This document shows positions 2,664 to 37,124 of a DNA stretch of 64,000 nt, piece after piece. This stretch comes from Sabellastarte sp. h YS-2021 (lineage: Eukaryota; Annelida; Polychaeta; Sabellida; Sabellidae). The notes below the pieces were generated by a model, which was given only the letters and a program-made list of their open reading frames with translations, was not told the origin of the DNA and did not search any database. Both the position numbers and the translations under genes were made by a program. Every line of letters starts with the position of its first letter. The first letter of the stretch is position 1. Location: NCBI GenBank assembly GCA_964017235.1, contig OZ024938.1, forward strand, positions 14,065,454 through 14,129,453, written 5' to 3'.

Positions 2664-2681
2664 AAGTTTTCCAGTGGTCAA
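2664..2681. repeat. 5' target-site duplication of the 10-kb LINE
   Basis: The 18-bp word aagttttccagtggtcaa recurs at 12681-12698 with one mismatch. The pair brackets the LINE. Copy B has a single, uninterrupted version at about 29025-29042. Confidence 0.93.
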
Positions 2682-3389
2682 GTGTGATGTGTGACATGGA
2701 CAGAAGTGTATTTCCACAAGAGAGAAATGTTTCACTAATTTTGAGATGAAGTTTTGTATTAGTCTTTACAATGAATGTGGGATATTTATTATAAAGATAT
2801 ATAGATCAACATGACTCAATTAGAACATGATATAAAAATAAGGATTTAGAGTAAAAAGGAAAAGTTATAAACAGCATGAAGTTTTTAATATTCCTACAAC
2901 TGTGTGGAAATGACCATATTTGGATAAACAAACTAATTAGTATTTTCCATTGAATGTGTGTACCAGGAAGCTAATTAAATCAGTATAATTAACAATATTA
3001 CACAAGGAAATTGAAAACTGGGGACTAGTGTCACAGGTGCATTGAAGGTGTGAAAATTCTAAAAAAGGAACATACAGAGTATATTTTCTGAATATTGAAA
3101 AGTGTTGTTTTCTTTTCTGAGGACTGCATGCTGGGAGTGTATTGGTCATATATTACTGACCTTAATTAAACAAGTGAAAGTTGTGATCTGGGGTTCAGCC
3201 TCATAAACAACAAAAGTAATGTGTACCAGATGACTTTTCAAGAAAGTGTTTTTTTTTACAGAAAGTTATAAAGATTGTATATATAGACTCTGGGATTATT
3301 GAACACCCATTAGACAAACAAGAAGAATAAGAGATTATAAAGTGGAGATAAACTGAGAAGTTTTAAAAGGCGAAACAAAAGAAACATGG
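2682..3389 (+). other. LINE 5' leader (untranslated)
   Basis: 708 bp of A/T-rich sequence between the target-site duplication and the first ORF1 ATG, with no open frame of note in sense. A tatatata word lies at about 3279. The internal promoter expected of a LINE should be here, but no element can be defined by eye. Confidence 0.55.
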
Positions 3390-4694
3390 ATGGAAAATCT
3401 GCATCTCTCAACAGAACTTAACAAAAAGAGAAATTTAAGCCAGGTTTCAGCGAGTAGCTCTACTCCAAGCCCTATGTCAAAGATGGCTAATGTTAAAAAA
3501 CCATGTTTTCCTGATGCTGATGACTTGGATAGCTGCACGGCAAATGAAAAAGATGAATGTCATTTTAATCCCTTGAATAATGCTGCATTTCTTGCATTAA
3601 CTGATAATGCAGAAACATCTGAGACTTCACTACATGAAAAAATGGATACTATTATTGTACTGTTAAAAACTTTGACAAGTGCCTTTTATTCTCAAAAAGA
3701 AAGTACACAACAAGATATTGTTGGACTGCAGGAAGAAAACAAAACCCTAAAATTGTCTTTGAGACAAATCGAAGGCAAGGCTATAAGGATGGAGAATGAA
3801 ATTGACCTACTGAAAAGCAGATATGAAGACCTGCAACTCAGATCAATGAATCAAAATATACTAATCCATAATGTGCAGGAAGAAAGAGGTGAAGATATAT
3901 ACAAACTTGTGTGTTATATTTTTGTGAATAACCTGAAGGTACCAGAGCAGCTTCTCCACTCTGAAAAACATCCAGCAGGCCCAATTTTTATTGACATTGC
4001 CCATCGTATTGGAAAACCCGGCTGGAAACCACGACCGATTGTTGTAAAATTTGCTCTTAGAAGAGGAAAGGACATTATTTTTAAATATGTTAAAAACCTC
4101 AAAGGTCAAGCAATATCCATCAGTGAGCAACTGCCAGGATCAATGAGGGAGAGAAGGGACATCTTGTTTCCAAAGATGCGACGCCTACGTGACCAACACA
4201 AAAATGACATTGGTTATAAGGTGCAACTATCAAAAGACAAACTCTTTGTGAACAATTCTCCAGTAGCAAGCACTTTCAAGGTTAACCCACTGCCAGATGA
4301 GATGTCAACCCCAGTTAGTTACGACACTCTGCTGCATACTGATGTTCTAGAACACACAAAAAGTTACTTTCAAGGTCACCTTATGCAAGTGAAATCTATC
4401 CAGGAAGCTAAAGCTGCTTACTCTGCCTTACTGCAAAACCACAGTGTATCAAAGGCACATCATATCATGTATGCTTATTGTGTTGCTGGGGATTCTCCAA
4501 ATCAGTTTATCCAAGGAAATGATGACGATGGTGAATATGGAGGCAGTGAGATTCTAAGGGATACTCTCAACAAACACTCCTTGACAGGCTGCTTTATTGC
4601 TGTATCCAGACTCCACAATGGGCCAAACATTGGTAAAAAACAGTTTGAACTTATTCAATCTTGTGCACAATTGGCAATTGATAAACTTTCTTAG
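3390..4694 (+). CDS. LINE ORF1 protein with C-terminal IMPACT/UPF0029-like domain
   Basis: A 434-aa open frame. Residues ~1-90 are Ser/Asn/Asp-rich and probably disordered. Residues ~100-150 form a heptad-like coiled coil. Residues ~153-230 match the L1 ORF1 RRM (QNILIHNV; PRPIVVKFALRRGKD). Residues ~235-292 match its C-terminal nucleic-acid-binding domain (EQLPGSMRERRDIL; VQLSKDKLFVNN). This is the RNA-binding chaperone that coats LINE RNA. Unusually, the protein continues for about 115 residues. Residues 318-434 read like the N-terminal domain of IMPACT/YIH1 and bacterial YigZ: FQGHL at 327-331, AHHIMYAYC at 356-364, NDDDGEYGG at 377-385, and SRLHNGPNIGKKQF at 406-419 in place of the family's SRW.GG..LG..RF. 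The ATG at 3390 was chosen; an ATG at 3386 is in another frame. The fusion is read from a single uninterrupted frame. The domain's role in the element is unknown. Confidence 0.9.
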   Translation: MENLHLSTELNKKRNLSQVSASSSTPSPMSKMANVKKPCFPDADDLDSCTANEKDECHFNPLNNAAFLALTDNAETSETSLHEKMDTIIVLLKTLTSAFYSQKESTQQDIVGLQEENKTLKLSLRQIEGKAIRMENEIDLLKSRYEDLQLRSMNQNILIHNVQEERGEDIYKLVCYIFVNNLKVPEQLLHSEKHPAGPIFIDIAHRIGKPGWKPRPIVVKFALRRGKDIIFKYVKNLKGQAISISEQLPGSMRERRDILFPKMRRLRDQHKNDIGYKVQLSKDKLFVNNSPVASTFKVNPLPDEMSTPVSYDTLLHTDVLEHTKSYFQGHLMQVKSIQEAKAAYSALLQNHSVSKAHHIMYAYCVAGDSPNQFIQGNDDDGEYGGSEILRDTLNKHSLTGCFIAVSRLHNGPNIGKKQFELIQSCAQLAIDKLS

Positions 4695-5938
4695 ACACTG
4701 ATAAATTAAACTAACGCTACCATTCAAGGATTAAAAACTGTGGTTAAGGTGGAATTAAATATAAATTACCATTAATGGATCACACTAATGCTGCAATATA
4801 GGTTAAAATTTGCAATAATTTGTGGACATAAATGTTGTCATGAAGGTTAAAAGTGAACAATAATAAGTAAACTTAACCAGAACTTTAATTAATGATGTAG
4901 AGAACATATGGTTTCAATAAATAAAAGCCAAAACAAATGTCAAACTTAAAGTCATTGAAAATATGATTTTAATTAATTGATTTTGACATAAGCTAAACCT
5001 TAACTGAGTGTCACTAAAAGGGCGATGGGCCCTTGTAATGTCATGTAATGACTGACGGTTGAAAATATGCATTTTAGAAAGATAATGCCGTGATATAATT
5101 AAGAGAAATGTTTATGATTTGTGTGCATAAATGTTGCAATAAAATTTAAAAGTGTGCAATAAGTGCAATAAGTATTCATTATTCATCAGTAATAATATGT
5201 AAATATAAAAGAAGCAATAAAGGTGCAAATTTTGCAACAATGAATAAACAAAAATGCTGTAATTAAAGTAAAATACATTAAATGCGGAAAGATAAATGCT
5301 GATATAAAGGTTAAGAATATGTTAATAATTTGTAAACTTCAATGCTGCAATATAATTCAAAAGTATGTGATAAGAACTCGTTATTCGTTAGTATTGTTGA
5401 AAAGATTATAGTCACATTGGTGTACTAGTGTGTAGTGACTGTGAAGTGTTAATTTCTGAGTATCGTTGTGCATATTTTCTGACATGCTGAAATAAGTACT
5501 CTTTATTCATTAGTATTGTTGAAAAGGTAATAGCCACTTCTGTTTTGTGGCTGTAAAGTTTTAATCTTGAGTAGTGTCATACATATTTTCTGACATGTGG
5601 CAATAAGTACTCATGACTCATTGGTATTCTTAAAAAGGTAATAGCCACATTTACTTTTATTTAAATTAGTGACTGTAAAGTTTTACTTTTGACTTTTTTA
5701 AGTTTGTAATTTTGACATGTGGCATGTAGCCATTAATTGTTCCATGACATAATCCAAACCTTAACCCTCATTATATGGTAAAAATATACAATAATATGAA
5801 AAATTAATGTAAATGCTACAATTAAGGTTAAAAGCATGTGATAATAAGTGAATTTAATTAAAGCTGTGATAAAGGTGTAGTAGAACAAAGGCATAATTGG
5901 TACATTGTTCTAGTTAATGGTGTCTTTTGAACTGTTTT

Positions 5939-6190
5939 TTGACATGTGGCAAGTTACCTTGTTTTTATATGATTTAACTAAAACTTTACCTAGCAGTATG
6001 TGGTAAAATATGGCAAGTAACCTTGTTTTATATGATTTAACTAAAACTTTACCTAGCAGTATGTGGTAAAATATGGCAAGTAACCTTGTTTTATATGATT
6101 TAACTAAAACTTTACCTAGCAGTATGTGGTAAAATATGGCAAGTAACCTTGTTTTATATGATTTTCATATGATTTAACTAAAGATAGTAT
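5939..6190. repeat. 63-bp minisatellite, about four units
   Basis: The word gatttaacta recurs at 5971, 6034, 6097 and (after a short duplication) 6171, with an exact 63-bp step. The units also share 'cctagcagtatgtggtaaa' and are almost identical, so the array expanded recently. Confidence 0.9.
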
Positions 6191-6228
6191 GTGGTAAAAA
6201 TATGCAATAAAACGTAAACTTTAATGCT

Positions 6229-6302
6229 GTAATACAGGTTAAAAGTATGTAACATCCAACAACATGTAATACAGGTTAAAAGTATGTAACATCCAACAAC
6301 AT
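6229..6302. repeat. 37-bp tandem doublet
   Basis: A 37-bp unit beginning gtaatacaggttaaaagta at 6229 is repeated without change at 6266. It lies in the inter-ORF spacer of the LINE. Confidence 0.85.
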
Positions 6303-6650
6303 GTAAATCATGCAGCCATAAATGTGCAGTGAAGGTCTGATATTGGATATAGTAAAAATATTAAACGGTTAAGATATAGGTAAAATATAATATATAACCA
6401 TAAATGCAATCTTAAAGGCCTTATATACAAAGTAGGTAATAGTTAGTAAATTTAATAAGTGCTATAATAACTTTTGTTATCGGTGCTGGTTTAAAAGTTA
6501 CTGTTATTGTGTCGTGATTAAAGCTAAAATTCTGGTTTAAAAGTTACTGTTACTGTGTAGTGATTAAAGCTAAAATTTTGTGTACTGGTATTGAGATTTT
6601 TGTCAGGAAATGGTTTCATATATGTTATACATCTCGTTTTTGATAAGCTA

Positions 6651-7759
6651 TCATATAGTAAACTTTCAGAGCTATTGCACATTGGATAGCTGAGTAATAG
6701 CTACTTTGACATTCTTACTATTGAGTAAATCCATTGTAACTCCAAAACTATTGCAGTTACAGTATTTTCATAAATACGCTGTTCAGCTACTTTGTCCTTA
6801 GGTAGAAGATGGTACATAGTTTGGAGTTCCATTGCATGCCATAAGTAATAACTATTTTCTTATTTGTAGTAAAATAATGACACAAGTAAATGTGAAATAT
6901 CTTCAAATATTAAAATTAAGCAAATCCTTTCAATATGCTATTCATCTAGTTTCTTTTACAGGCTACCACATAGTAAAGTGTCAGGCCTGTTGCACTTTGG
7001 ATAGCTGAGTAACAGCTACTTTGAAATCCTGACTGTTGAGTAAATCCTCTGTAACTCCAAAACTATCTCAGAGTATGTCTTGTCGGATGTCCTCTGAGGT
7101 GTCGAGGTTGGGGAAATCTTTTCAGGTATGTTATTTCACGTAGTTTTTTTGATAAACTATCACATAGTAAAGTTTCAGACCTGTTGCACGTCAGATAGCT
7201 AATTTATAGTCACTTTGAAATTCTGACTGTAGAGTAAATCCTTGAAAACTTCAAAACTATTGTGGTTAGAGTATTTTCTTAAAATAAATTGTTCAGCTAC
7301 TTTGTTCTTAACTATAAGTGAGTAATAGCTATTTTCTGATTTGTGGCAAGATAATGACAGAAGTAAATGTCATATATCTTCAAAAGTATTAAAGTTAGGG
7401 AAATCTTTTCATATATGCCATTCATCCAGTTTTTGATAAGCTATCACACAGTACAGTTTCAAACCTGTTGCCCATTGGATAGCTGAGCAATAGCTACTTT
7501 GAAATTCGGACGGTTGAGTAAATCTATTATAACTTCAAAACTACTGCAGTCAAGGTGTTTTCCTAAAATACGTTCTCCAGCTACTATGTCCTCAACTACA
7601 AGATGGCATATAGCTTGGGGTTCAATTGCATGCTGTGAGTTAAAGCTATTTCCTTTTTTGTAGCAAAATAATAACAGAAGTAAATGTAAAATATCATCAA
7701 AAGTATTAAAGTTAGGGAAATCTTTTCCCATATGTTATTCATCTAGTTTTTGATAAGCT
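6651..7759. repeat. Array of four ~190-320-bp units in the LINE spacer
   Basis: Units start at about 6651, 6962, 7149 and 7441, each with a 'tatcacatagtaaagtttcag' type box. They continue through a 'gatagctgagtaatagctacttt' box, a 'taactccaaaact' box, a 'gttcagctactttgt' box and 'ttcatctagtttttgataagc'. The second unit is internally shortened. A fifth start at 7760 is cut off. The order of boxes matches the array at 480-1285, outside the element. Confidence 0.8.
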
Positions 7760-9000
7760 ATTACATATATAGTGGGGCTGCGGTTTTAAAGGATTAAGTA
7801 TGGTTAAAATTATCAATGTATTAGGCCATAGTCTCTGGGTGTACTACGATACCATAACAAAAACTAAAAGGTCTTCAGAGGATAAGTAAAGACAAATGCT
7901 GTAATAAAGTTAGGTTGTAATGATGATGCAGTTCAAATTACATTGGTTTTTATGAAAAAATCCTTATTATGATAATGTTGATAATATTTAAAGACTATTA
8001 CAACTTCATCTTTGAAACTTAAAGTTACTGTTGCTACACGCAACAAATGTACATGATGTATAATATGTTATCCACTTTTTTAAAGAGCATGATCTTTTTG
8101 TTACAAGCAGCAAATATAATGCACATATTTACTTTGTTACCCAATTTTTTAAAGTGTGCGATCTCAATTTTGAATGATCAATGTTTTGTGTCCTATTGTA
8201 TCATTAATGGGATGTATACTGTCTCAATAGATTCCACTGCTTTGCCATATTTATTTGAAACAAAAAAATGTCTGCAAGAACTTTAGAACATTAAAAGATG
8301 CCTGATACATCAAGTATTAAAGTGTTATCTGCAAATTGCCAGGGTCTTCGCAATATGGAAAAAAGGACAGATGTCCTTTCGTACTTTAAAGAAACCGGTG
8401 CTTCAATTGTTTGTCTGCAAGACACACATCTGTTACCAAAAGATGTAGGTTCTGTTAAAAATTATGGCCTGATTGTTATTTAAATGGTTCAAAAACCAAT
8501 CCACGTGGGGTAGCTGTACTGCTAAATAATAACTTTGATTACCAAGTCTCTAAATACAATACAGATCATAATGGCAATTACATACAGCTTCTATTAACTT
8601 GTAGCTCTCTGAAAATTAATCTTATTACAATCTATGCATCAAATCATGACTTTTTTGATAAATAAAAAACTTAGCAAATAATGATGAAACAGATTATGTC
8701 ATAATCTGTGGAGATTTCAATTTGGTGATAGACCCACAAAAAGATTCTCACAACTATGTAAAATTAAATAATCCAAAAGCAAGATCAATTGTCCTAGACA
8801 CTGTAAATGACCTTGATTTGATAGACATTTACAGAACTCTTAATCCACAAACTAAACGTTATACATGGAGAAGAAAAAATCCACTGAAACAGTCAAGATT
8901 GCATTTATTTTTGATGTCAAACTCAATGTGTGACTTAATTTCAAAATGTGAGATCCAGTCAAGCTATAGATCAGATCATTCTGTCCTCGAACTTAATATA

Positions 9001-9231
9001 GGGGGCCACGGTGGCAGAGTGGTAACACTCTCGCCTCCCACCTCTGCGGCCAGGGTTCGATCCCCGTCATGGCCGTAAGTGGGAAAGCTGGTAGTTGCTT
9101 GCCGTTGGTCGGCAGTTTACAGTACAGAACCCTAGCGAACTCTATGTACTGGTTTCCTCTGCCCTTCCAACTACCCGTCGTGATATGACCTGTACAGTGT
9201 TGAAAGCGACGTAAAACCCCAAATAAACCAA
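9001..9231 (+). mobile_element. tRNA-derived SINE (family 1) inside ORF2
   Basis: The head reads as a tRNA-like pol III promoter: box A TGGCAGAGTGG and box B GGTTCGATCCC. A body with 'cagtttacagtacagaac' and 'gtactggtttcctctgcc' follows, with tail 'aaaccccaaataaacca'. A perfect 14-bp target-site duplication, tcgaacttaatata, lies at 8987-9000 and 9232-9245. The same family recurs in reverse at 45536, 53478, 55620 and 58300, and as a headless piece at about 20850. Confidence 0.95.
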
Positions 9232-9802
9232 TCGAACTTAATATATCACTTCATAACTTTAAGGTGGGTAAAGGAATTTGGAAATTCAACAATAGTCTAC
9301 TTAAAAATAAGGATTATCTAGATACCATTAACATGTGTATTGAGGAAGAAAAAATGAAATATGCTGTTCCAATTTATAATCTTGATTACTTAATGAACAA
9401 CCAGGATACTATTGAATTGATAATTGAAAAAGATATGTTTTTAGAAATGCTCTTTATGCGTATAAGGGGAGAAACAATAAAATTTGCTACGACTCTCAAA
9501 AAAGAAAATAAAATTAGGGAAAAAATTCTGTTGGAAGACATAGATCATTTAGAAAGAATTCAGGATGAGACTGGAACAAACTCAAAATTAATGGAAGATA
9601 AAAAGCTAGAACTTCAAAAATTACGTGAAAAAAGAATCAACGGTCAAATGGTAAGATCACATTTACAATGGCTAGACCAGGGGGAAAAGCCCACAAACTT
9701 TTTTTGCAAATTGGAAACTAAAAATTTTGTTGATAAGACCATTAAAAAATACAAACAGCAGACGGTTCTATTATAACCGAACAACACAAGATATTAAAAG
9801 CA

Positions 9803-12337
9803 GTGCAAAAATTCTATAGTAATCTTTTTAAAAGTAAGGATAATTCACTCGATACACCAGACATTTCTGAAATGCCTGAATTACAGAACATTAAGAAAAT
9901 CTCCCAACCAAACCTAGGCAGAGAAATGTCAACTAATGAACTAGGAAATGTATTAAAAAAGATGAAAAACAATAAATCGCCGGGTATTGATGGGCTTTCA
10001 GCTGACTTTCTGAAAGTATTTTGTGGAAAACTGAAAAATCACATTACAAATGCAATAAATATCTCCTACAACAAAGGTATATTACCAATATCATGGCGAC
10101 AAAGTATTATAACTTGTTTGCCAAAAGGTGACAAGGCCAAACATTTTTTGAAAAACTGGAGGCCAATATCTCTCTTATGTGCAGTACATAAGTTAGCATC
10201 TGGTGTCTTAGCTGAAAGAATGAAGCCCTATCTTAATAATTTAATCTCAAAAACACAAACTGGCTACATCAAAGGACGATATATAGGGGAAAGTATTCTT
10301 ACAGTTTATGACTTGATGAATTTTACAGAAAAGTATAACATTCCAGGGATGATCATACTAATAGATTTTGAAAAAGCGTTTGATTCTGTGTCATGGAAAT
10401 TTTTATACTCAACTTTAGCTCTGTTTGGTTTTGATAAAGCTTTTATTGACTGGATAAAAATATTTAATAATAATGCTACTGCATTTGTTTTACAATGCGG
10501 CGTTCTTTCAGATCCAATTCATATTGGCCGTGGATGTAGGCAAGGTGACCCAATTTCACCTTATCTTTTTTTACTGGTGGCAGAAATCTTAAATATAATG
10601 ATTGAAAACAATATCAGCATAAAAGGAATTTGTGTTGGTTGGCAAGCTTTAAAAATGACACAATTTGCAGATGACACTACACTACTACTTGATGGAAGTC
10701 AAAGTTTCTTGCAGACAGCTTTAAACATTATGGAGCTTTTTGGTTCATTATCAGGTCTCAAAATGAACATCGAAAAAACTAAAATAATATGGATAGGTAG
10801 CAAGAAGCACTGTAAAGAAAAGCTAAATATTTCAGCAAAACTACATTGGGGAGATACAGAATTCTCATTTTTGGGTATTGATTTTTCAGTGCATCTAGAG
10901 AATATACCTGAGCTAAATTTCATTAGAGCAATGAACAAAGCCAAAAAAGTACTAAATTGTTGGAAGAGTAGGTTTCTAACACCTATTGGGAGAATAACAG
11001 TGATAAAAACTATGATCCTGTCTAAATTCAATCATTTATTCATGTCTATTGTGACGCCTCAAAAAATCTTAGATGATTTAAACAGAATGTTATTTTCTTA
11101 CCTATGGGGAGGGAAAACACACAAAATTAAAAGAATAAATGTCTGTGCTGATTATTTAAAAGGTGGACTACGTATGGTTGATATTTATAAATTTGAAAAA
11201 TCTTTAAAACCTGGGTGGATGAAACATATTTTGACAAAGCCGGAGTCGCCATGGAACTTATTGCTACATGAAAGCTGTAAAAACATATTCAAAATGTTTT
11301 ATGTTGGGTCAGAGTGGTTTCAACAACAACTTCCAAATCTTAATCCCTTCTGGTGTAATGTATTTGAAAAGTGGATAACATTCTGTAGAAATCAAAAAGT
11401 CAAAACAGACAAAGACCTCTTAAGTAGTAGCATTTGGTATAAGAGTCAAATATCTCCAGAAAGTCTGTTTTATGGAACCTGGTTTAAAAAAGGTATAACG
11501 ATTGTGGCAGACCTACTTAACTCAGATGGAACCATTTTTGGCCCAGATGAACTAAAAACAAAGTATAAGCTCAATGTGAATATATTACATTACTACAGAA
11601 TAAAACACCTGATAGCAAAATTCAAAGAGAGGAAAAATGTTTTTTCTAAAGTTAATTTGGAAGGACCACATGTTCCATTTCATATTAATGTTCTGTTTAA
11701 TCCTGAAAAGGGAAGTAAAAAGTTCTACACAATACTTTGTTGTGATGTTTTTGAACAACCGAACAATGAAAAAAAATGGTCACTTGAATTAAATGTGCAA
11801 CTACATAGTGAATTCTGGAGAACCGCTTACAAGATATGTTTTAAAGCAGTTTTGGATAACTCGTATATATGGTTTCAGTACAGAACATTGCATAGAATAC
11901 TTGGTACAAAGGACCACTTACATAAATTGAATCTCAGTGAATCTTTTATCTGTGGAATATGTAGTCAGCAACGTGAAAACATTATCCATTTATTTGGCAG
12001 ATGTCAAATTGTGCTTGGTCTTTGGAAAAACATTACAAAATGGTTTGAATTGAAACTCTCCATTAAAATAAAGCTCAATGAGTTGGATTTCATATTCGGG
12101 TATCAGAAGCATGATCAAAATTTTTGGTCTTTGAACATCATACTTTTGATCACTCGAAGCTATATATTTCATTGCTCAAAATACAAAAATTGTGTTAATA
12201 TATACCATCTGCAAAATCTTATAAAAGAAAAGTACTTAGAACAACATACTCTTTCCAAATTAAACAACACACAACACATATTCAGCAAAAAATGGTTGAC
12301 CTGGAAATCATTATTTGAGGAAGAGAACAATAAGTAA
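9803..12337 (+). CDS. LINE ORF2 reverse transcriptase part and C-terminal knuckle
   Basis: This uninterrupted frame of about 844 codons is the largest surviving piece of ORF2. Reverse transcriptase motifs appear in order: KSPGIDGLSADFLK, NWRPISLLCAVHKL, TGYIKGRYIGES, LIDFEKAFDSVSW (catalytic Asp at frame residue ~188), GCRQGDPISPYLF, FADD (288-291, catalytic Asp pair), GLKMNIEKTKIIW and FLGIDFS. Near the end CGICSQQ...HLFGRC is the CxxC...HxxxxC knuckle typical of L1/Tx1 ORF2. The first codon is GTG and is not a true start; the piece is the downstream part of the broken ORF2. No RNase H domain is seen, consistent with L1-like elements. Confidence 0.92.
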   Translation: MQKFYSNLFKSKDNSLDTPDISEMPELQNIKKISQPNLGREMSTNELGNVLKKMKNNKSPGIDGLSADFLKVFCGKLKNHITNAINISYNKGILPISWRQSIITCLPKGDKAKHFLKNWRPISLLCAVHKLASGVLAERMKPYLNNLISKTQTGYIKGRYIGESILTVYDLMNFTEKYNIPGMIILIDFEKAFDSVSWKFLYSTLALFGFDKAFIDWIKIFNNNATAFVLQCGVLSDPIHIGRGCRQGDPISPYLFLLVAEILNIMIENNISIKGICVGWQALKMTQFADDTTLLLDGSQSFLQTALNIMELFGSLSGLKMNIEKTKIIWIGSKKHCKEKLNISAKLHWGDTEFSFLGIDFSVHLENIPELNFIRAMNKAKKVLNCWKSRFLTPIGRITVIKTMILSKFNHLFMSIVTPQKILDDLNRMLFSYLWGGKTHKIKRINVCADYLKGGLRMVDIYKFEKSLKPGWMKHILTKPESPWNLLLHESCKNIFKMFYVGSEWFQQQLPNLNPFWCNVFEKWITFCRNQKVKTDKDLLSSSIWYKSQISPESLFYGTWFKKGITIVADLLNSDGTIFGPDELKTKYKLNVNILHYYRIKHLIAKFKERKNVFSKVNLEGPHVPFHINVLFNPEKGSKKFYTILCCDVFEQPNNEKKWSLELNVQLHSEFWRTAYKICFKAVLDNSYIWFQYRTLHRILGTKDHLHKLNLSESFICGICSQQRENIIHLFGRCQIVLGLWKNITKWFELKLSIKIKLNELDFIFGYQKHDQNFWSLNIILLITRSYIFHCSKYKNCVNIYHLQNLIKEKYLEQHTLSKLNNTQHIFSKKWLTWKSLFEEENNK

Positions 12338-12680
12338 AGGTTTAATTTAAAATATTTAAAAAAACGATCAATGCTAATATGCATTTGTTTCACATACATC
12401 TTGCTATATCATGGTGTGTGGAGTCAGGCAAGGAAATGTGTTATTTGCAGTGTATTAATAGTTATGGTATGACTCTTTCATTGTTGTTGTTACACACTTC
12501 CTATATTGGTGTTCAGGGTAGAATTACTTAGATGGTAAAGTGGATTCTCTTTCTATTAAAAATGAGTGAAAATATGATTGTATTGTACACAGAATATATT
12601 GATTGTATTGTATGTCTGATAATGTTGTCACACTTTTGTATATGTAAATATCTATATAAATAAATAAAAAAAAAAAGAAA
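12338..12680 (+). other. LINE 3' UTR and A-rich tail
   Basis: About 320 bp of non-coding sequence followed by an 'aaataaataaaaaaaaaaag' type tail that runs into the downstream target-site duplication at 12681. The A-rich tail fits L1-like target-primed reverse transcription. Confidence 0.85.
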
Positions 12681-12698
12681 AAGTTTTCCAGTGGACAA
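12681..12698. repeat. 3' target-site duplication of the LINE
   Basis: aagttttccagtggacaa, one mismatch from 2664-2681. The copy-B locus then continues in register with 'aatgttatc.att'. Confidence 0.93.
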
Positions 12699-13438
12699 AA
12701 TGTTATCCATTGGTAAAAAATGTAATTTAATCGTAGTGTCTGGACTGCAGCAGTGGTGGGTCTAAAGTTTATGGGTGTTCCACAGCCTAAATTCATACAT
12801 GGATTTTCACATTTTCATGATACGTTTAGTTGTTAGCATTTTTTTGGCTTTAATCTTTGTGGGTTTTCCACAGTTTAAAACCATGCATTTCTCCAAGCTT
12901 TAGGATATGTTTAACCTCAGAGGATCTTGAGCTGAATTGGTTTTGGGGAGTATCTAGCAATGACTATTGTAATGGCAAGACTTTCCTGTCTTAAACGCCA
13001 TAGTTGAAAAAGCTTATAGAATTTCTTTCATTTTATATGTGTATCAATGCTACCGAAAGTGGTGCTTCATAATAGGCTTCCATGTAAAGTGACACCTTCC
13101 TGTCGTTAAAAGAAATCGTCACATGGTAAATGAATAAAATCAAAGTTTTTGCCCCCCCCCTTCTTTAACTGCATGAAATCTCATACATTTGTTAGGATGA
13201 CGTGAGTTCTGCTTAGTTGTTATATTTGAATGCAATTTGATGTACTCAATGATTACTTTGGAGCAAAACCTTTTAAGTTATAATCTATGTATAGATGTAT
13301 GATTGCACCATTGATCATTCCACTTTTTCATAGAAATGACTTGTGTCATGCAAACCTTTGGTGAAAGAATGAAAATCACAGAAAAGACCATGTAGAGGTC
13401 CTTATCTTTGGCTTCATGAAACTAGTTCAATATCCTAC
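12699..13438. other. Intron between FMO-A exon 2 and its unseen exon 3
   Basis: No coding signal. The sequence matches 29043-29803 in copy B closely. A C-run of nine lies at about 13151. Exon 3 of this copy is not found between here and position 1 and is presumably left of the window. Confidence 0.6.
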
Positions 13439-14050
13439 CTGCATTTCCATCAGTTGGAAAGCTGAACCAGAAGCCGGACCACTCATCACAAAAGCAAGGC
13501 CATCCATTTCAGCATCTGGATGCAGTATATGTTTGTACAGCTCGCACTTCATCTGGTCCTCTGGTTTCCAGATTTCATCAAGGAAGGAGTATTTTTGTAT
13601 AAATCCAATTCCCATGACAACACAATCATTATTTCTCAATGTGGTTCCATCTTTTAGTGCCACGTCTTTACATTGAAAATGATCAATAGGACCTACTTTT
13701 TCTACTTTGCTGGATTTCACTGCAGCTAAAAATGCATCTGTATCAGTTATTGCTACTCTGTCTTGAGGTAGGGTCAAAGTTGCCTCACAATCCTTCAAAG
13801 CCACTGGGTAAACCAAATTTCATCTTTTGGTGAAATATGTTTTGATTTTCTAGACTTGCAAACCTTGTATAGATGTAATCATGTGGTATAAGGTGTCCCT
13901 CTGAATCTGGATTTAATCTGTTCATTACCCAGTAGTTTCTTTTCCCTGGATTATCGGTGAAGCAGATGAATACTTTGCTGCCTGGTCTTTTAGCATGCTG
14001 ACCACGATGATCAGTACTCTCTTGTCTTTGAACATAACTCCATCTTGAAT
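13439..14050 (-). pseudogene. FMO-A exon 2 (damaged)
   Basis: 612 bp against 639 bp in copy B. The deletion removes the NADPH dinucleotide-binding loop. GT donor (minus strand) follows 13439 and AG acceptor precedes 14050. Confidence 0.85.
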
Positions 14051-15671
14051 CTAAAAAGATTGTATACCAGTGATTTAAGAGTGCTATTTTGATTTAATTT
14101 AAATACATGGGTTAAGTTATTTACACAGACAAATGAATGTTGGACCGTTTATAAAAATACATTCAGTGAAATTTTAAATTCAAATTACAAAGCTGTCTTC
14201 ATGATGCTGAATTTCATGTCTATTGGCTGCATTAATTTTTCTGTAAATTATTATTAATTATAATAATTATGCATTAAATTATTAAATATTTGAAATTATC
14301 CAGCATTAAATAATGCCATTAGTTATTTCTCCAGGCCAAAGCTGGGGATATCCTTGTTTAAGACCTATTGCACTGCTATGGCATGTTGTGCACTGGGCCA
14401 GGAAAGAAAGGCTATTTTAAGGTGATTTTAAATTCCCAATGTCAATAAATTTGTTGTAATCTTAAGTTTACAAATGTGGTTAATACAGTGAAAATTTGAA
14501 AAAAAAAAACATATTGTTGTGATCAGCTAAAACTTGAGACTGCTGCAATAAAATTACAGGGGCATAGGAAGCAATTTTTGGTTGGGGCGAGGAACTAGAT
14601 TGCATTGACTTGACACCTGTATTCCCAGACAGGCCATCTCTCATGCAATAGGCATTCAATGGATATTTTTGTAGAACCGATTTTGTGTGATTCACAATTA
14701 TTAATTATCACAATTAACTAAATTATTTTGTTACGATGTTATGTAATGATGATGACAGTGTGACTGACATTAATCCTAAGTTTCCCCAACCTTGTGCGGG
14801 TGTAAAAATACATATAGTTACCTCTGCACTTGAAAGGCATTTCAAATATCTTGACTACATGTTTCCACAACATGTGACCTATCCATCAAGTGCCGAGCTG
14901 ATACAAGATCTATTTTTAGCAAGGTTAATCCTCAAACTGAGGGGGATGTATAATCATTGGACTAGCTAGGTCCAATAAACACACAGTAAAGAAAGAAGAG
15001 TTTTCTGGGAAAATTCTTATCAGCTGACAAATTGCTGTGATAAACCGTTGCTCTGTGTGAATTTGAAAATACATATCTAAGTTCTAAATAATTAGCAATA
15101 CTAGAAATTAAATGTAGAAGATTCCTATATGTATGATTTTGGTCTGCATAAGTGATACATTTCACAGAATTTTACAAATCCCATGACAGCTTAACTGAAA
15201 ATGTTCCTTTTAAAAATCATAAAAATGAATATTTTATAGTTCAAATGGTAGTTTACACAATGGTACATGTGAACTGTGAATAGGGCAAAAGTGTAATTTG
15301 ACCACATATTAGTGAGTTACCTGTGCAAATTTACAAAAACTTTAAAAAGTTGCAAAAAGTTCCAGTTCCTACACCTATGTCAAATGTGAAGAGACTTACA
15401 AAAAACCTCCAGCTGTAGCCTTTTTAGCAACATTTATCGAATAGTGTTGAATTTGAAGTAACATATTTGGAATTTAGAAATGTCACATATAAAATTCTGT
15501 AATGCCTAAAGTTTGCAAGATATAACCTCAATCCAAGTATGCACCACTTAGTCTGTTAACAGTACCTTCCAGAGCAATTATAAATGATGATATTTTACAC
15601 AATAGACAGTTAATAACAGCCTAAACCTTCGGGACCACATTTCTCATTCATAACGTCTTCAAGTGAAACAA
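14051..15671. other. Intron 1 of FMO-A, no gene
   Basis: Non-coding, closely matched by 30443-32146 in copy B apart from small indels. No RNA gene or ordered repeat is seen before the 5S-derived SINE at 15672. Confidence 0.55.
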
Positions 15672-15800
15672 TGCCATAAGATGTTTCGGTCTACTAGCGC
15701 GAGCTGCAAAGCCATCAGAGACACAACTAGTGCACCAAAAGCGGTCACCAATCTAAGTACTAATGTAGCCCATTGCCGCTTAACTTCAGGGAACAGAACC
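15672..15800 (-). mobile_element. 5S rRNA-derived SINE (SINE3-like), copy A
   Basis: On the minus strand the head reads gttaagcggcaatgggct, then attagtacttagattggtg and accgc. This follows the 3' half of 5S rRNA, including the intermediate element and box C of its internal promoter. A body containing tctctgatggctttgcag follows. Copies lie at 32147 (duplicate), 46945 (+) and 49384 (-). It is too short and diverged to be a 5S gene. Confidence 0.75.
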
Positions 15801-15840
15801 ATACTCATCATCCTGTGCTACAATTCATAGAAATCTCTTG

Positions 15841-15990
15841 TGACCCAGTGGTTAGCATTTTTGGCATCCAAGTATTGATCGTCACCTCTGTGTGGGTTTG
15901 ACTTACACAAGTGGCAATGCTAATGACCCTGGTTGTTGAGCATGACTTAAAACCCTTACTTTGACTGGCACAAAAAGTGAATGTAAAACT
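15841..15990 (+). mobile_element. tRNA-like SINE family 2, copy A
   Basis: The head has a 'cagtggttagca' box-A-like word and 'gtgtgggtttgactt' near box B, then 'acaagtggcaatgct', 'gttgagcatgacttaaaaccc' and 'actttg'. The same modules recur at 19802, 32339, 36245, 47751 (-), 52474 and, as a piece, 45467 (-). The box B is cleanest at 19858 (gggttcgactccc). Confidence 0.65.
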
Positions 15991-16037
15991 ACCCATGACA
16001 CTCTGCCAGTTTTTCGCTACTTTTATTAAGGCATTAC

Positions 16038-16581
16038 CTCTGATGTATGAAGCATGATTCCCCCATATAAATCACTCAATCCTTTGAATGTCGGCATCTT
16101 TGGAAACTTGGAAGCACCCTGAGGCTATTTTGACAAAATCATACTGTTCTCCATTCTCCTTATCATGAGCAGTTTCCACAAAGTATACCGTCCACTTGTT
16201 CTTGCTTTTGCTTAGTCTGGTTACCTTGCAATTCAATTTGATATGGTGGAAAAGCTCAAAATGTTCACAGAAACTCTCCAAATAGCTACGATAATCCCAG
16301 TGATCAAGAAGTATTTTCTTTGTATCCCTGATTGGAAAATCAGAGAATCCAGACATATCTCTCAGCTTGTATTGGGTGGTCATAGCCATCCCACTTTTGG
16401 TAACCAGAATCAGTTATGAAAGCTTCATAATTCCACTGACCACCAATGGTGGAACTGCAATCATAGCAGTGACATCATAAGAATCTTCCAGTAAGATTTT
16501 TGTGGATACTAACCCAGCAGGGCCAGCTCCAATAACTGCCACACTTTTACGAGCCATAGAGTCTTTATACTGTTGAGTCAT
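16038..16581 (-). pseudogene. FMO-A exon 1 (damaged)
   Basis: Carries the start and the FAD-binding GAGPAGL, but the frame is broken at three points relative to copy B. The end keeps a GT donor after HTSE-type codons. Confidence 0.85.
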
Positions 16582-18677
16582 TTTACCTACCAATAGCCTT
16601 TAATGTATGAGTCATTTGTTTCTAGCCTATGTCTAAAAAGTAATATCTATTTCGAGGACATTGTCCCATTAAAACATTCAGAGCTTATACTTTGTGTCAT
16701 TTTCACTTTCAGTGTTGCATATACTTAACTTCTGCTTCATGATGTCCAACTGGGGACATTGTCTTATAAAACATTCATTACATAGACTTTGTGTCTTCTT
16801 CAGCTTCAGTGTTACATACTTAATTTCTGTTTCACATTGTCCCACTGAGTTGATAACAACTGGTTTCATTGCTTGGCTATCGCTTCTGTTTTCAAGGCTT
16901 TGACTCCAACTCATAGCATCATGATGCACTGATGGTCAACCCTATGGTGGTTTTGAAAGAAACATAAAATCCCCAACTTCTAAACTTTTGATATCAAAAG
17001 CTGCATAGTATATCTCCATTTTGAAGGCACAGTGGTTGCATTTTTTTTCCAAAAATGAGAATAAAATCTAAAAATTTTAAAATATAAAGATGAAATACAA
17101 TATTTGAAAGTTTTAGGTGGGGTAAAATCAAGGGTAAACATTCACTTTGACATTTTCCAAACGATACAATGATATGCAACATCACAGTTTTTTTCAAAAT
17201 ATTTGTATAAACATTGGTTGCAGAAATATTTTAGTAGCATTTGTATAATGATTTCCAAAACTCTATATATTCTTTAATATTCATGGAGGAAAACCTAGAA
17301 GGTTATTTTACATTTATAGCAGATGGGGTGTTGATTGTGGGCTCTGTGCTGGATATAGGAAAACTTATGCATTAAATTTTGAAGCATTAAACCTTTGCTA
17401 TAAACTAATTAATTTCCACAAATAGGTTGCTCGCCAATGACCAAATGAGTGTGGAATCCTGACCAACGTGATGTATTTTCATATTTCTACTGTTCTGTTA
17501 ATACCATGTTGAAAGCATTATTTAACCCACGTCGATACTTGAATTGGAAAAGGCTATTCAAACTTATATTATAAATACCGTAGGTTTTTTACATTTATTT
17601 TGACATTACCCTTAAGTTTAATTTGGCATTTTGCTGGCATTTCACACAAAAAAATAGTAAACAGTATGACCAGACGATTCGGCTCCATAATCGTGTATTA
17701 TTTGGGTCATTTAAACAAACTGTCAATAGAATGGGACAAATGCATTGCCAGTTTGTTTGTGACATGTGATAAAATTAAAGTGCATGTTTCTTGTATTTGG
17801 GACAAATATTTAAACTGAAGACAAATGAACATGAGGACAAATTCACCAAACGTTTTGTATCTCCAAAGTGTTTTTTTCTCTCTCAGATCTAAAATGCTTC
17901 TTAAGTTAAATGCTGAGTTTCATACAGTGTCATTAAGTTTAAATGATTAAGCTTAGCTTGCAAGGTACGTTATGCCAGTGTTCACAGAACCGTAGCAATT
18001 CATCAATGAAAATATGAGATGACCGACAATAAAAGTGGCACTAATCTTAGAATAATCCAATGTTCCTGTTCTGTGAGATTACGTTTCTAGCGGAAGTGGT
18101 ACTTGAGCCAAGGAACCAAGTTAGCTGCCACAGCTTAATTCAAGTGGTAAATAAACACTCCCTTAAAAGGGTTAACTTGGGATCATAAAGCTGAATGTAT
18201 TTTCTAGTGTATCATCAAAACTATTACATGAAACTCTACAAAACCTGATTGAATTATTCTTTATGACTATTAAGACCCAGTGACAAGATTGTTGGGTTTG
18301 GCAAAGTGTAGCTTGTGACGTGAAAGTGTGACATTAATTTGCTCTGTTATCTTGCTGTAGTGACCCAATCTTCAAAATCCTGCCTTCATCTCGGAAATCT
18401 TTGGGTGCAGTTGTGTAAAGTGAATGTGTTACCTTGATGTGACCTTTGACCTTCTCTAAACAGATCCATAAATCGATTTTACAACTCTTTATATTAAGCT
18501 CACTAAGTAATGGTGCTGTTAGCTTACTGTTGTCTTCTTGTAATAATTGTTTTTTACTTACTTTTCCAGTATGTCCTAAAAGACTCTTTATATTTGTACT
18601 TTTTTATTTCTTCTATATCTTATGGTGTCCAGCCATCTTTCAGAGGCTGTGGTGCAATGGCATCTGTGATGCGAGAT
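16582..18677. other. 5' flank of FMO-A
   Basis: No gene seen. It matches 33116-35129 closely and 46458-49350 as a diverged relative, so it is the shared 5' flank of the array. A direct-repeat motif tgacctttgacct lies at 18440-18452. It is the DR1 layout of nuclear-receptor half-sites, but sits in repeat-like sequence. Confidence 0.5.
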
Positions 18678-19660
18678 ATTCTAAATCTAATTCTAATTGG
18701 ACTTTTATAGTGCTTAATCTCCTCAAATAAGAGGACTCTAAGGCACCACAAAACAAAAAGCAGACATCAAAATTTCCGTATCCAGGGGCATAGCAGGGGT
18801 CAAGCACCATGGAGAACGCCAGGGGAATGATCCAGGCTAAGGTGGGTATGCTTTGGTGTACAGGTAGGTTTTGAGCTGCTTTCTGAAGGAGGCCAGCGAG
18901 GGAGAGGCACGAATCTCATCAGGGAGAGCATTCCACACAGTGGGAGCATCAAACGCAAAACTATTACCAAACTGTTTGACAGATTTGTGAACGGATGGGC
19001 AGAACTTTGGAATCACAAGGAAATTACCACCACTTTGACTGCGCCTAGTACTATAAGAACTACTGTAGGAGGAAAGATATGGAGCAAAATACCTGGGAAA
19101 GCCTGTGTGAAGATACTTATAAACAAGTGTGGCCAACTTGAACACTGTGCACTGTTCAACAGGAAGCCAATGCAGTTTCTTTAGCACAGGAGTTATACTG
19201 GTGTATCGACTGGTGTTTGATAAATTCTAGCTGCACTATTTTGGATGCACTGTAATTTGCGTAGATTGAACTTGGAGAGGCTCCTGAGAAGTGAGTTGCA
19301 ATAATCCAGCCGACTACTAACCAGAGCATTAGCCACAAGCACAGAAACATCATGAGTGAGAAACCGCCTGACATGTCTGAAATCACGGAGTTTAACAAAA
19401 CAACTTTTGCAGACATTCTGAACATGCTTGGACAAAGAAAAGTCTGAATCAAACCACACCCAGATTTTTTACTGAATCAGCAGGGCAGAGTGAGTTGCCC
19501 AAGATATCAATTGGAAAACATGCTTTCAACTTGTCCCACTGTCTCTTCGAACCAAAGATGATAAACTCGGTCTTGTCTGGATTCAATTTGAGCTTACTAG
19601 TGGACATCCACTCTTTGACATCGTCTAGGCACCTATTTAGCTTTTGATTACTATAACAAG
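18678..19660 (-). mobile_element. CR1/L2-like LINE 3' fragment, copy A
   Basis: Minus-strand frames encode the end of a CR1/L2-type ORF2: LNPDKTEFIIFG, NLGVWFDSDFSLS, SSRLDYCNSLL, LHWLPV, FDAPTVWNALPDEIR and SFRKQLKTYLY. A 3' UTR with 'ctataaaag' and an ATTAGA-type repeated tail follows. It is 5'-truncated inside the reverse transcriptase. Relative to the duplicate at 35130 it lacks 2 bp near 19468, which splits the frame. It predates the segmental duplication. Confidence 0.9.
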
Positions 19661-19801
19661 GGATTATTGGCAACAGATTCACATGAAATAATATCCCTTG
19701 GGTGAATATTACAAAATTTTATTGACTTCCCACTACTGTTAATAAGATATTATGTATAAGTACAATATCAAACTTATTTGAGTGTAATAAGATCCAATGT
19801 G

Positions 19802-19990
19802 ACTTACTTAGTGCTTTGCAAGTTTGGCATCTAATCACTGGCTGTCACCTCTGTATGGGTTCGACTCCCAAAAGTGGCAATGCCTAAGTTCTGTCAATTT
19901 GTGGGGTTAGTTCGTTAAGTATGTTATGATAAGAAGTTTTTTTCTTTGCCCTTTGATTTAAGTCCGAACTCCAAGAAGAAAGAAAAACCA
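19802..19990 (+). mobile_element. tRNA-like SINE family 2 copy (19.8 kb)
   Basis: A head with gtttggcatctaatcactgg and box B gggttcgactccc, then 'aaaagtggcaatgcc'. The tail differs from other copies after about 19890. Confidence 0.55.
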
Positions 19991-20412
19991 CGGAACATTA
20001 TTTATTAGTGAATTGTTAACATGTTTGCAGCTTATTTTTACTAAAACATTACAACAATTTGTTACATAATCTTGAAACCATAATAATTTTAATAATATTT
20101 CAGTTTCAACACACAAAGAATACTTTAGTTATCCGTAACTCAGTGAATGGCGACTATTTTTTTAAATTGTTGTTTCACAAAACACTAATTCAAACAACTA
20201 ATTTCATTCTGAGTGGTACAAAAACAGTTTTACTAACGTGTGTTTACTTTGTTTAGCTAAATTGTACAGAAAGCGAAAAAAAACAGATGTGTTTTTAGTC
20301 ACAACTGAAGTTCACTATTGAAACTATAATAAAGTGGCCTGATACTGTTGTAAATTAATGGTTACAAATGTATTTGTGAAAGTATATCATCTTTCTCATC
20401 AGAGGCCGGAGT
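19991..20412. other. No gene seen
   Basis: A/T-rich intergenic sequence with a close copy at about 36430-36871. No structured element recognised. Confidence 0.5.
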
Positions 20413-20653
20413 CAGGGGCGGATCCAACCTTTAAGTAAGGGGGGGTTCACATCAGACATACCATAACTAAGGGGGTTGGGGGGCATGCCCCCCGGGAAAA
20501 ATAATTTTTGGTAAAAATATATATATTTCCTGTAAATTTAACACCACTCTCAAGAAATAATTTTGTACTTTGGGTTGAACCCTTAACATTATTTTTCGGG
20601 GGGTGGGGGGAGGGGTGTTCGAACCCCCTGAACCCCCCCTAGATCCGCTAGTG
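20413..20653. mobile_element. Small TIR element (MITE), copy A
   Basis: Ends CAGGGGCGGATCC and, inverted, CACTAGCGGATC, flanked by ggagt at 20408-20412 and 20654-20658. The interior is G/C-run rich with an aggggggcatgcccccc-like palindrome near 20480. A non-autonomous DNA transposon is likely; the superfamily is uncertain. Confidence 0.65.
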
Positions 20654-20849
20654 GGAGTGTATATGTAACCTACTCCCTGAAGTACTTTTTAGTGAATTAC
20701 TGGTGCGCTGTACAGTAGCAATGCACTGTCTGTAGTGCAATGAAGTGGGTACATCAGTGCAGGTAATGGCCCGGTAAGCACTGACATACAAATTCATGTT
20801 TTGAATTAACGGGAGATATTCCTATACATGATTCATAATGCAATCAAAC

Positions 20850-20995
20850 CCGTTGTCTCCTACATTCTTTCGGGTGTTTAAAGTACAGAACCTTGACCAA
20901 CTGTATGTACTGGTTTTCTCTGACCATAAAACTACCCATGGGGGTGACCCATAAAGTGTGGAACGCGACGTTAAAATCCAAAATAAACATATCAT
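20850..20995 (+). mobile_element. Headless SINE family 1 fragment, copy A
   Basis: Shares the body and tail of the SINE at 9001 (taaagtacagaaccttg..., tgtactggttttctctgacc, gcgacgttaaaatcc, aaataaac) but lacks the tRNA-like head. Duplicate at about 37305-37465. Confidence 0.7.
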
Positions 20996-21036
20996 ATGCT
21001 GTAATAGGATTTAGAACAAAGAATATTTCAATTTCT

Positions 21037-21146
21037 GGGGCCGTATTCATGAAAGGTCTTAGCCAAGTCTTAGGCTTAAGTTGGCTATATTTTTATACAA
21101 AAGTTAAGCCTAAGACTTGGCTAAGACCTTTCGTGAATACGGCCCC
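21037..21146. mobile_element. Hairpin MITE, near-perfect inverted repeat, copy A
   Basis: Two ~43-bp arms, starting ggggccgtattcatgaaagg and ending as its reverse complement with one arm mismatch, enclose a loop of about 25 bp. The arms also contain aagtcttaggcttaa. A foldback DNA element; the duplicate is at 37508-37617 and a related longer element lies at 51912. Confidence 0.85.
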
Positions 21147-22050
21147 TGGTTTGTATGATAAATGTATACTGTGTTAAATGTGATTAATACTCAGTTATAT
21201 TAGGTCCTTGTGCATTTGTTTTGACATGAAAGCATAAAAGTCTCTATTTAATTTTTGAATTTATATGCCACAGTCAAGAATTTTCAGTAACTATAATATT
21301 CTAAATTAAATGCAATTGTTTTTATTTACTTCTTACTACTTGCTGTACAGTATGAAAAGGTTTGCAAGTTATCCCTGTTAAATTGTACACAAAGGTAGAC
21401 ATAGAACTTGGAAGACACACCACGACATACTTGCCAAAATAGGCTCAAAATTTGGTCAGTGTCCTTGTGTTACAGTCTAAAAATAGTGAACTTGAAAACA
21501 ACTGGGGATTCAGTCAAGTGTGACATTTTTTTCCAAATAGACCCAAAAACTGATTCAAGGGTTTTGGTCAATTAGAGACAGAAAGAGTAGTATTTTTAAT
21601 ATTTGCCTAAATATTGGGGAATTAATATTTGGCACAGCAATAGACAGATAACACACCTATTATTTGAGGTATTAACATTGAAAATATATGAAATACTCTT
21701 TGTGTTATTCAGGTTCAAAGTCGTTTAAAGTCAAAAATTCAGCAAAATTAGACCCATGAACTGATTCACGCTTCAATGACATATGAAAGAAAGATACAAT
21801 TGCATAAAACAGAAGTATTTAAGAAATGCTCTAGGAATAAAGACTCCCGTGAAATCAACCAAGGTGTTTGTATTTGCAAACATCATTAAATCTTTTGGGC
21901 TTTCTTATTTCAAAGTGTCGGCTTATATGTCTGTGACAAAAAGATAATTTAACCATTAAAACAAACCTGTGCCTGTTTAACATATTTGTGGCATACAAAA
22001 AGTGCTAAGCCGAAGAGTATCCACTATAAGAAGAATATGTTTTCCGTTTA
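21147..22050. other. 3' flank of FMO-B exon 3, no gene
   Basis: Non-coding. The matching stretch in copy B is interrupted at 38328-39430 by a LINE fragment. The site at about 21857 here is empty. Confidence 0.55.
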
Positions 22051-36871: not shown

Positions 36872-37124
36872 CAGGGGCGGATCCAACCTTTAAGTAAGGG
36901 GGGGTGGGGGTGGGGGGTCACATCAGACATACCATAACTAAGGGGGTTGGGGGGCATGCCCCCCGGGAAAAATAATTTTTGGTAAAAATATATATATTTC
37001 CTGTAAATTTAACACCACTCTCAAGAAATAATTTTGTACTTTGGGTTGAACCCTTAACATTATTTTTCACGGGGTGGGGGGAGGGGTGTTCGAACCCCCT
37101 GACCCCCCCCTAGATCCGCCAGTG
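36872..37124. mobile_element. Small TIR element (MITE), copy B
   Basis: Ends CAGGGGCGGATCC and, inverted, CACTGGCGGATC. The right end is closer to the left end than in copy A. A G-rich insertion near 36899 lengthens it. ggagt lies on both sides. Confidence 0.65.

What the first reader, a model, noticed from the sequence alone, without database searches (positions are those of the whole stretch)
4341..4694. LINE ORF1 protein carries a C-terminal IMPACT/YigZ (UPF0029)-like domain
In one uninterrupted 434-codon frame, a standard L1-type ORF1 (coiled coil, RRM, CTD) continues into about 115 residues that follow the IMPACT N-terminal domain from end to end: FQGHL, AHHIMYAY, DDDGEYGG, then SRLHNGPNIGKKQF where the family has SRW.GG..LG..RF. 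IMPACT/YIH1 binds GCN1 and damps GCN2 stress signalling, and YigZ-type domains are thought to bind nucleic acid. A selfish element carrying this fold could touch the host translational stress response or add an RNA-binding surface. I know of no described L1 with this architecture, but cannot search.
Basis: partly seen in the sequence, partly recalled or inferred. Interest (0 to 1): 0.9.

Follow-up and report, generated by a model that had tools for sequence, protein, structure and literature searches.

The report
Jumping gene with captured IMPACT domain
A 10-kilobase jumping element of the LINE type makes a protein whose tail end is a complete domain of the cell's own IMPACT/YIH1 family, an unusual capture of a host protein part whose use to the element is not yet known.

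Summary
An uninterrupted 434-codon frame (3390-4694, +) ends in a complete UPF0029 domain: Pfam PF01205, E 4e-16, residues 324-430, profile 2-107 of 107. Of 500 PDB fold matches at E<=10, three have E<=1e-3: YigZ, Yih1 and a Thermus homologue. The domain is of the eukaryotic IMPACT/YIH1 type. The frame lies inside one LINE insertion of about 10 kb (2682-12680), bounded by an 18-bp target-site duplication that a paralogous empty site at 29025-29042 confirms. Downstream on the same strand is a damaged L1-like ORF2 (E 5e-50 to human ORF2p). A coiled-coil helix was predicted with confidence; RRM and CTD were not (no Pfam hit, pLDDT 36), so 'standard L1-type ORF1' is plausible but unproven. The GCN1/GCN2 idea is weak: published mapping puts GCN1 binding in the RWD region, and no RWD was found here. 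Scans of viral, phage, plasmid and prokaryotic collections found no relative of this ORF1, and no host genome is held, so whether the fusion is family-wide could not be tested. I read it as a new ORF1 architecture: a host IMPACT 'ancient' domain captured as the C-terminal module of a LINE RNA-packaging protein.

The parts
2664..2681 (.). Left copy of the 18-bp target-site duplication
   Evidence: Differs from 12681-12698 at one base and from the empty site 29025-29042 at one base
2682..12680 (+). Whole LINE insertion, 9999 bases with A-rich 3' tail (a later SINE included)
   Evidence: Flanking duplication and paralogous empty site in the neighbouring duplicated unit
2682..3389 (+). 5' untranslated region
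   Evidence: Stops in all three frames; lies between element start and ORF1 ATG
3390..4694 (+). ORF1, 434 aa
   Evidence: the ORF listing; chance of such a run about 3e-17
3621..3851 (+). ORF1 coiled-coil helix, residues 78-154
   Evidence: AlphaFold2 helix, blocks of 81-150 at pLDDT 86-93; heptad 13 of 22 a/d hydrophobic
3852..4325 (+). ORF1 basic middle region, residues 155-312, presumed RRM and CTD (unconfirmed)
   Evidence: pI 9.8, charge about +10 for residues 155-316; RRM-like motif order recalled only; fold prediction failed
4359..4679 (+). UPF0029 / IMPACT-type 'ancient' domain, residues 324-430
   Evidence: Pfam PF01205 E 4.2e-16; PDB Yih1 E 1e-6; Foldseek YigZ 2.8e-6 and Yih1 4.7e-6
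4695..8297 (+). ORF1-ORF2 spacer, 3.6 kb, rich in internal repeats
   Evidence: No frame of 100 codons or more on either strand; repeats
8298..12337 (+). ORF2: endonuclease part (broken by frame changes and a SINE), reverse transcriptase and zinc-binding end
   Evidence: EN pieces weakly match Exo_endo_phos families, below cut-off; RVT_1 E 1.1e-30, zf-RVT E 5.6e-7; human L1 ORF2p E 4.6e-50
9001..9232 (+). SINE inserted later into ORF2, flanked by the 13-bp duplication 8988-9000 / 9233-9245
   Evidence: Copies elsewhere in the window; duplication
12681..12698 (.). Right copy of the target-site duplication

Best explanation
This is the first protein (ORF1p) of an L1-like LINE in a eukaryotic, probably invertebrate, genome, carrying at its C terminus a complete, divergent copy of the 'ancient' UPF0029 domain of the eukaryotic IMPACT/YIH1 family. 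Shown: the fused intact frame, the domain, its fold and eukaryotic type, and that it sits with ORF2 inside one insertion with a target-site duplication. Inferred: an ancestor of the element captured the 3' coding part of a host IMPACT gene (for instance by template switching during reverse transcription) and has kept it. Working model (inferred): the coiled coil makes ORF1p a trimer, the basic middle part coats the element's RNA, and three IMPACT-type domains project from each trimer as a docking surface for a conserved host partner, most likely of the translation machinery or of cell-cycle control, rather than as the main RNA binder, since the domain is slightly acidic. I give the architecture about 0.9, family-wide maintenance about 0.65, and the docking role about 0.3.
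For: PF01205 E 4.2e-16, profile 2-107 of 107. Yih1 is the only PDB sequence match at E<=1. YigZ, Yih1 and the Thermus homologue are the 3 of 500 Foldseek matches with E<=1e-3. Against 26 prokaryotic rows (25 Pseudomonadota by how they were drawn, 1 Thermus) the domain shares with Yih1 a net loss of two residues behind DDGE, one residue lost in the GGLV loop, and 10 residues that differ from the prokaryotic majority; it keeps 15 of 29 columns that are at least 90% conserved in those rows, Yih1 keeps 17. Element boundaries with 18-bp duplication and empty site. L1-type ORF2 downstream on the same strand. Coiled-coil helix. Middle region pI 9.8 and about +10, IMPACT-type domain pI 6.3 and about -2. 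A domain identical to Yih1 at only 27 of 108 places, yet stop-free and fitting the profile, has been under coding constraint for most of its history (inference). Precedents of extra modules in ORF1p: PHD and esterase (PMC4120745 and PMC3905857 passages).
Against: One copy only: no second copy in the window, no host genome, no relative in viral contigs or, with the ORF1 query, in genome contigs, and none of the domain in phages or plasmids by tblastn. RRM and CTD unconfirmed. The R[YW][YF]GG motif of the family is RLHNG here, so a conserved binding face may be changed. Eukaryotic type rests on one eukaryotic reference, Yih1, and no archaeal row was in the comparison. One of the 26 rows fits poorly (13% and 14% identity). 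The structure was predicted with 14 YigZ rows in its alignment, which may lean it towards YigZ. The 3.6-kb ORF1-ORF2 spacer seems unusually long (recalled yardstick), so a nested event between them cannot be wholly excluded. No passage read gives the ancient domain a function.
Confidence: 0.68

Rival explanations
1. Private chimera: only this copy, or a few, carries the domain, picked up from a host IMPACT-like transcript or paralogue, with no role in the element's life cycle.
For: A single copy is seen; no relative of the ORF1 or its domain was found in viral contigs, nor of the ORF1 in genome contigs; ORF2 of this copy is broken.
Against: The domain is far from Yih1 (27 of 108 identical), joins ORF1 in frame, ends with ORF1 and is intact; a recent capture should look like the host gene, unless the source was already a divergent paralogue. 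The host's IMPACT gene could not be compared.
Confidence: 0.2
2. The domain is an added nucleic-acid-binding surface that helps ORF1p coat or chaperone the element's RNA.
Against: The domain itself is slightly acidic (pI 6.3, about -2); none of the passages read reports RNA binding by the ancient domain; the three significant Foldseek matches are only family members without an assigned nucleic-acid role in their titles.
Confidence: 0.22
3. The domain dampens the host GCN2 stress response by binding GCN1, as IMPACT/YIH1 does.
For: Same domain family as IMPACT/YIH1.
Against: In Yih1 the GCN1-binding evidence points to the RWD domain and linker, and the RWD alone inhibits when overexpressed (passages); this ORF1 has no RWD match at E<=1.
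Confidence: 0.08
4. The frame is a host gene or a separate element nested inside the LINE and not its ORF1.
For: A long 3.6-kb spacer before ORF2, with repeats; one 12-base match between 2682-3390 and 4695-5200.
Against: Same strand and canonical order; coiled coil followed by a basic region, the order expected of a type II ORF1; no 12-base match between 4600-5100 and 7700-8297, nor between 2682-3390 and 7700-8297 (shorter or mutated duplications would be missed).
Confidence: 0.07

Closest known systems
Type II (L1-type) LINE ORF1p: coiled coil, RRM, CTD
   Same: N-terminal coiled-coil helix, basic middle region, followed downstream by an L1-like ORF2
   Different: Carries an extra C-terminal UPF0029 domain; RRM and CTD not detected by Pfam or PDB sequence searches
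IMPACT / YIH1 ancient domain (UPF0029, PF01205)
   Same: Complete domain, same short gaps as Yih1, DDDGE motif, fold
   Different: No RWD match in the protein; R[YW][YF]GG is RLHNG; part of a retrotransposon protein
Bacterial YigZ family
   Same: Same fold, 1vi7 E 2.8e-6
   Different: Ends with the first domain; lacks the prokaryotic residues behind DDGE and in GGLV; TIGR00257 only 23.6 bits against a cut-off of 168
LINE ORF1p with PHD or esterase domains (CR1/L2 types)
   Same: An accessory domain added to ORF1p (PMC4120745, PMC3905857; passages)
   Different: A different domain; esterase ORF1ps in Repbase lacked RRMs according to PMC3905857

Membership tests
UPF0029 / IMPACT-type ancient domain (PF01205) | Match above Pfam's curated cut-off over the whole profile | tested here: met
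   59.3 bits against 27, positions 2-107 of 107
UPF0029 / IMPACT-type ancient domain (PF01205) | YigZ/Yih1 fold | tested here: met
   Foldseek 1vi7 2.8e-6, 6bqi 4.7e-6, 2cve 7.5e-5; the model was built with 14 YigZ rows
IMPACT/YIH1 protein | N-terminal RWD domain that binds GCN1 | tested here: not met
   No RWD match in the 434 aa at E<=1
Bacterial YigZ family protein (TIGR00257) | Score over the NCBIfam cut-off | tested here: not met
   23.6 bits against 167.95
L1-like LINE | ORF2 with L1-like reverse transcriptase | tested here: met
   RVT_1 1.1e-30, zf-RVT 5.6e-7; human L1 ORF2p 4.6e-50 over about 750 aa, R2 proteins 5.4e-21 or weaker
L1-like LINE | ORF2 with APE-type endonuclease | tested here: inconclusive
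   Two separate pieces match Exo_endo_phos families at E 0.0069 and 0.0011, both below cut-off
L1-like LINE | Target-site duplication and A-rich 3' end | tested here: met
   18-bp duplication with one mismatch, empty site, A-rich tail
Type II (L1-type) ORF1p | Coiled coil upstream of a single RRM | tested here: inconclusive
   Coiled-coil helix yes; RRM not found
Type II (L1-type) ORF1p | Transposase_22-type CTD | tested here: inconclusive
   No Pfam hit at E<=10, for which hmmscan filters are blunt; fold prediction failed
Type II (L1-type) ORF1p | Trimerisation and RNA binding | not testable with these tools
   Bench work needed

The most novel reading that the evidence does not exclude
A whole LINE lineage has taken the host IMPACT ancient domain as a fixed part of its RNA-packaging protein, so that every ORF1p trimer displays three copies that dock the element's RNP on ribosomes or on a translation or cell-cycle regulator: a retrotransposon interface with host translation control, and a natural handle on a domain whose partner is unknown.
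Probability: 0.15. Interest if true: 0.85.

Novelty: new variant of a known kind. Interest (0 to 1): 0.62.

Why it matters
ORF1 proteins of LINEs are known to carry extra modules (PHD, esterase), but I found no described case of an IMPACT/UPF0029 module in the papers held. The ancient domain is conserved from bacteria to eukaryotes, and papers of 2015 and 2020 still call its function or partners unknown (passages). An element that keeps it outside its usual RWD context would separate the two halves of IMPACT and offer a way to find what the ancient half binds.

Tried and rejected
Searched for relatives without success: ORF1 in viral contigs (7 pattern matches, 0 confirmed), the RT part of ORF2 in viral contigs (16, 0), the domain alone (6, 0), a mixed domain alignment in viral contigs (24, 0), ORF1 in genome contigs (19, 0), domain tblastn in phages and plasmids (no match). 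These are viral, phage, plasmid, bacterial and archaeal collections, not animal genomes, so the misses say little about how widespread the fusion is.

Chance origin of the frame and of the domain: rejected. Bacterial contamination or direct bacterial transfer: thought unlikely, since the gap pattern and 10 residues are of the Yih1 type and the frame sits inside a LINE insertion. Viral relatives by fold: 0 of 494 BFVD matches at E<=1e-3. PHROGs: nothing better than E 0.066. Intact ORF1 as evidence of selection: not used, because with a few lesions in about 4 kb of ORF2 an intact 1.3-kb ORF1 in one copy is not surprising. dN/dS could not be computed with one copy. Single-sequence fold of the RRM/CTD part failed, so no fold search was made with it.

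Literature: UPF0029 with retrotransposon or with transposable element, 0 papers; 'IMPACT domain' with ORF1 and LINE, 0. By the titles and abstract openings shown, searches listed nothing on an IMPACT-type ORF1; others (30 of 348 listed; 15 of 33; 5 of 770; 8 of 12,675) were cut short, so they are weak evidence. The one 'IMPACT domain' passage looked at (PMC11281659) is ordinary English. Repbase, Dfam and InterPro could not be searched.

Full report
OBSERVATION. The frame 3390-4694 (+) reads 434 codons without a stop; with the base composition of the element a run of 445 open codons (its stop-to-stop length) has a chance near 3e-17. Pfam finds UPF0029 (PF01205) in residues 324-430 over profile positions 2-107 of 107, 59.3 bits, cut-off 27, E 4.2e-16; as a fragment 63.0 bits, E 3e-17. 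Among PDB sequences only 6bqi ('Protein IMPACT homolog', Yih1) matches the C-terminal 131 residues at E<=1, with E 1e-6.

FOLD. AlphaFold2 on ORF1 with 14 YigZ rows gives mean pLDDT 62: a 77-residue helix at 78-154 (blocks of 81-150 at 86-93), a C-terminal domain with order E325-333, H337-352, E358-364, H384-395, E401-409, H417-431 (blocks of 331-434 at 67-89), and an unresolved middle (155-247 and 273-298 under 50). Foldseek against the PDB reports 500 matches at E<=10 (50 shown); three have E<=1e-3: YigZ 1vi7 (2.8e-6), Yih1 6bqi (4.7e-6), TT1547 2cve (7.5e-5); the fourth is 0.12. Against viral models 0 of 494 reach 1e-3. The YigZ rows may lean the model towards YigZ; the sequence evidence does not depend on it.

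WHICH TYPE OF UPF0029. In an alignment with Yih1 and 26 prokaryotic rows (18 loci, 7, and TTHA1053), the LINE domain and Yih1 both have a net loss of two residues in the stretch behind DDGE where the prokaryotic rows have xGTAG, both lack one residue in the GGLV loop, and share 10 residues that differ from the prokaryotic majority. The LINE domain keeps 15 of 29 columns conserved to at least 90% in the prokaryotic rows, Yih1 keeps 17. Identity LINE-Yih1 is 27 of 108; LINE against the prokaryotic rows is 13 to 27%, so raw identity alone does not separate the two. One row fits poorly (13% to LINE, 14% to Yih1), five loci were not recovered by my pattern, and no archaeal row was included. The family's R[YW][YF]GG is RLHNG here. 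I take the domain to be of the eukaryotic IMPACT type, and divergent. NCBIfam's YigZ model scores it far under its cut-off (23.6 against 168 bits).

IS IT PART OF A LINE? Yes. A stretch with flavin-monooxygenase-like coding pieces (named from recall) is duplicated in the window, and the second copy supplies an empty site at 29025-29042. In the filled copy an 18-bp stretch occurs at 2664-2681 and, with one mismatch, at 12681-12698 behind an A-rich tail; the 9999 bases between are absent from the empty site. Inside lie a 5' untranslated region of 708 bp, ORF1, a 3.6-kb repeat-rich spacer, and ORF2 (8298-12337) with RVT_1 (E 1.1e-30) and zf-RVT (E 5.6e-7). ORF2 is closest, among solved structures, to human L1 ORF2p (E 4.6e-50 over about 750 residues; R2 proteins 5.4e-21 or weaker). 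The endonuclease part gives only weak matches below cut-off (E 0.0069 and 0.0011) and is broken by changes of frame and a SINE with its own 13-bp duplication, so this copy can hardly be active.

IS ORF1 L1-TYPE? Partly shown. The coiled-coil helix is there; its best heptad register has 13 of 22 hydrophobic a/d positions, although the 3.5-residue periodicity alone is matched by 479 of 5000 shuffles for residues 78-154 and by 342 to 1214 for the other three stretches tried. The middle part is basic (pI 9.8, about +10) and, from recall only, reads like the L1 RRM and CTD (an AHRIG...RPIVVKF stretch). No search supports this: no Transposase_22-type hit at E<=10, no L1 ORF1p among PDB sequence matches, failed single-sequence fold (pLDDT 35.9).

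MECHANISM. Shown: architecture and membership of the domain family. Inferred: ORF1p forms a trimer, coats RNA with its middle part, and presents the IMPACT-type domain at its C terminus. Because that domain is slightly acidic (pI 6.3, about -2) I favour a protein-docking role over RNA binding. What it docks to is open. In Yih1 the main Cdc28-binding part (RWD and linker) overlaps the regions sufficient for GCN1, actin and ribosomes; RWD helix-3 substitutions lower GCN1 binding; a C-terminal fragment 133-258 that holds the ancient domain still bound Cdc28; the ancient domain's function and partners are called elusive (PMC4503747, passages) or unknown (PMC7140605, passages). ORF1 shows no RWD. 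So direct GCN1 binding is the least likely route; a ribosomal or cell-cycle partner of the ancient domain is possible.

COMPARISON. ORF1ps are sorted into five types, with type II = coiled coil, RRM, CTD, and with PHD and esterase additions known (PMC4120745 and PMC3905857, passages). Searches of the held library showed no IMPACT-type ORF1 (0 papers each; weaker, judged by listings: 18, 19, 40, 44, 60, 72); the passages seen of two mollusc surveys (PMC11203168; PMC10294476) do not mention one, and their text has no 'UPF0029' (searched as 'UPF' in the first). I could not search Repbase, Dfam or InterPro, where it may be recorded without comment.

LIMITS. One copy, no host genome, and collections without animal genomes: whether the domain is family-wide and selected could not be tested. 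That it is intact, in frame, at the very end of ORF1 and far from Yih1 makes a recent accident less likely, but a capture from an already divergent paralogue would look the same.

VERDICT. A real, unusual domain fusion; a new variant of LINE ORF1p; functional claims open. Interest 0.62.

Noticed in passing
12735-21855 and 29106-38328: Two long duplication units, 87-92% alike, with FMO-like (flavin monooxygenase-like, by recall) coding pieces on the - strand; a third set lies at about 42-46.5 kb.
   Followed up: partly
4695-8297: The ORF1-ORF2 spacer of 3.6 kb holds internal repeats (5947-6164, period 63; 6606-7065, 7112-7543 and 7399-7774 about 74-80% alike).
   Followed up: partly
9001-9232; other copies about 45536-45762, 53491-53722, 55627-55853: A SINE family with a tRNA-like head (recalled motif; ARAGORN finds no tRNA gene in the window), one copy inside ORF2 with a 13-bp duplication.
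   Followed up: partly
18678-19631, 35130-36085, 38327-39281: Reverse-transcriptase-like fragments, best seen on the - strand at 38490-39455, that appear to belong to a different LINE (FYADDTQLYVH stretch) and recur in the duplicated units.
   Followed up: no
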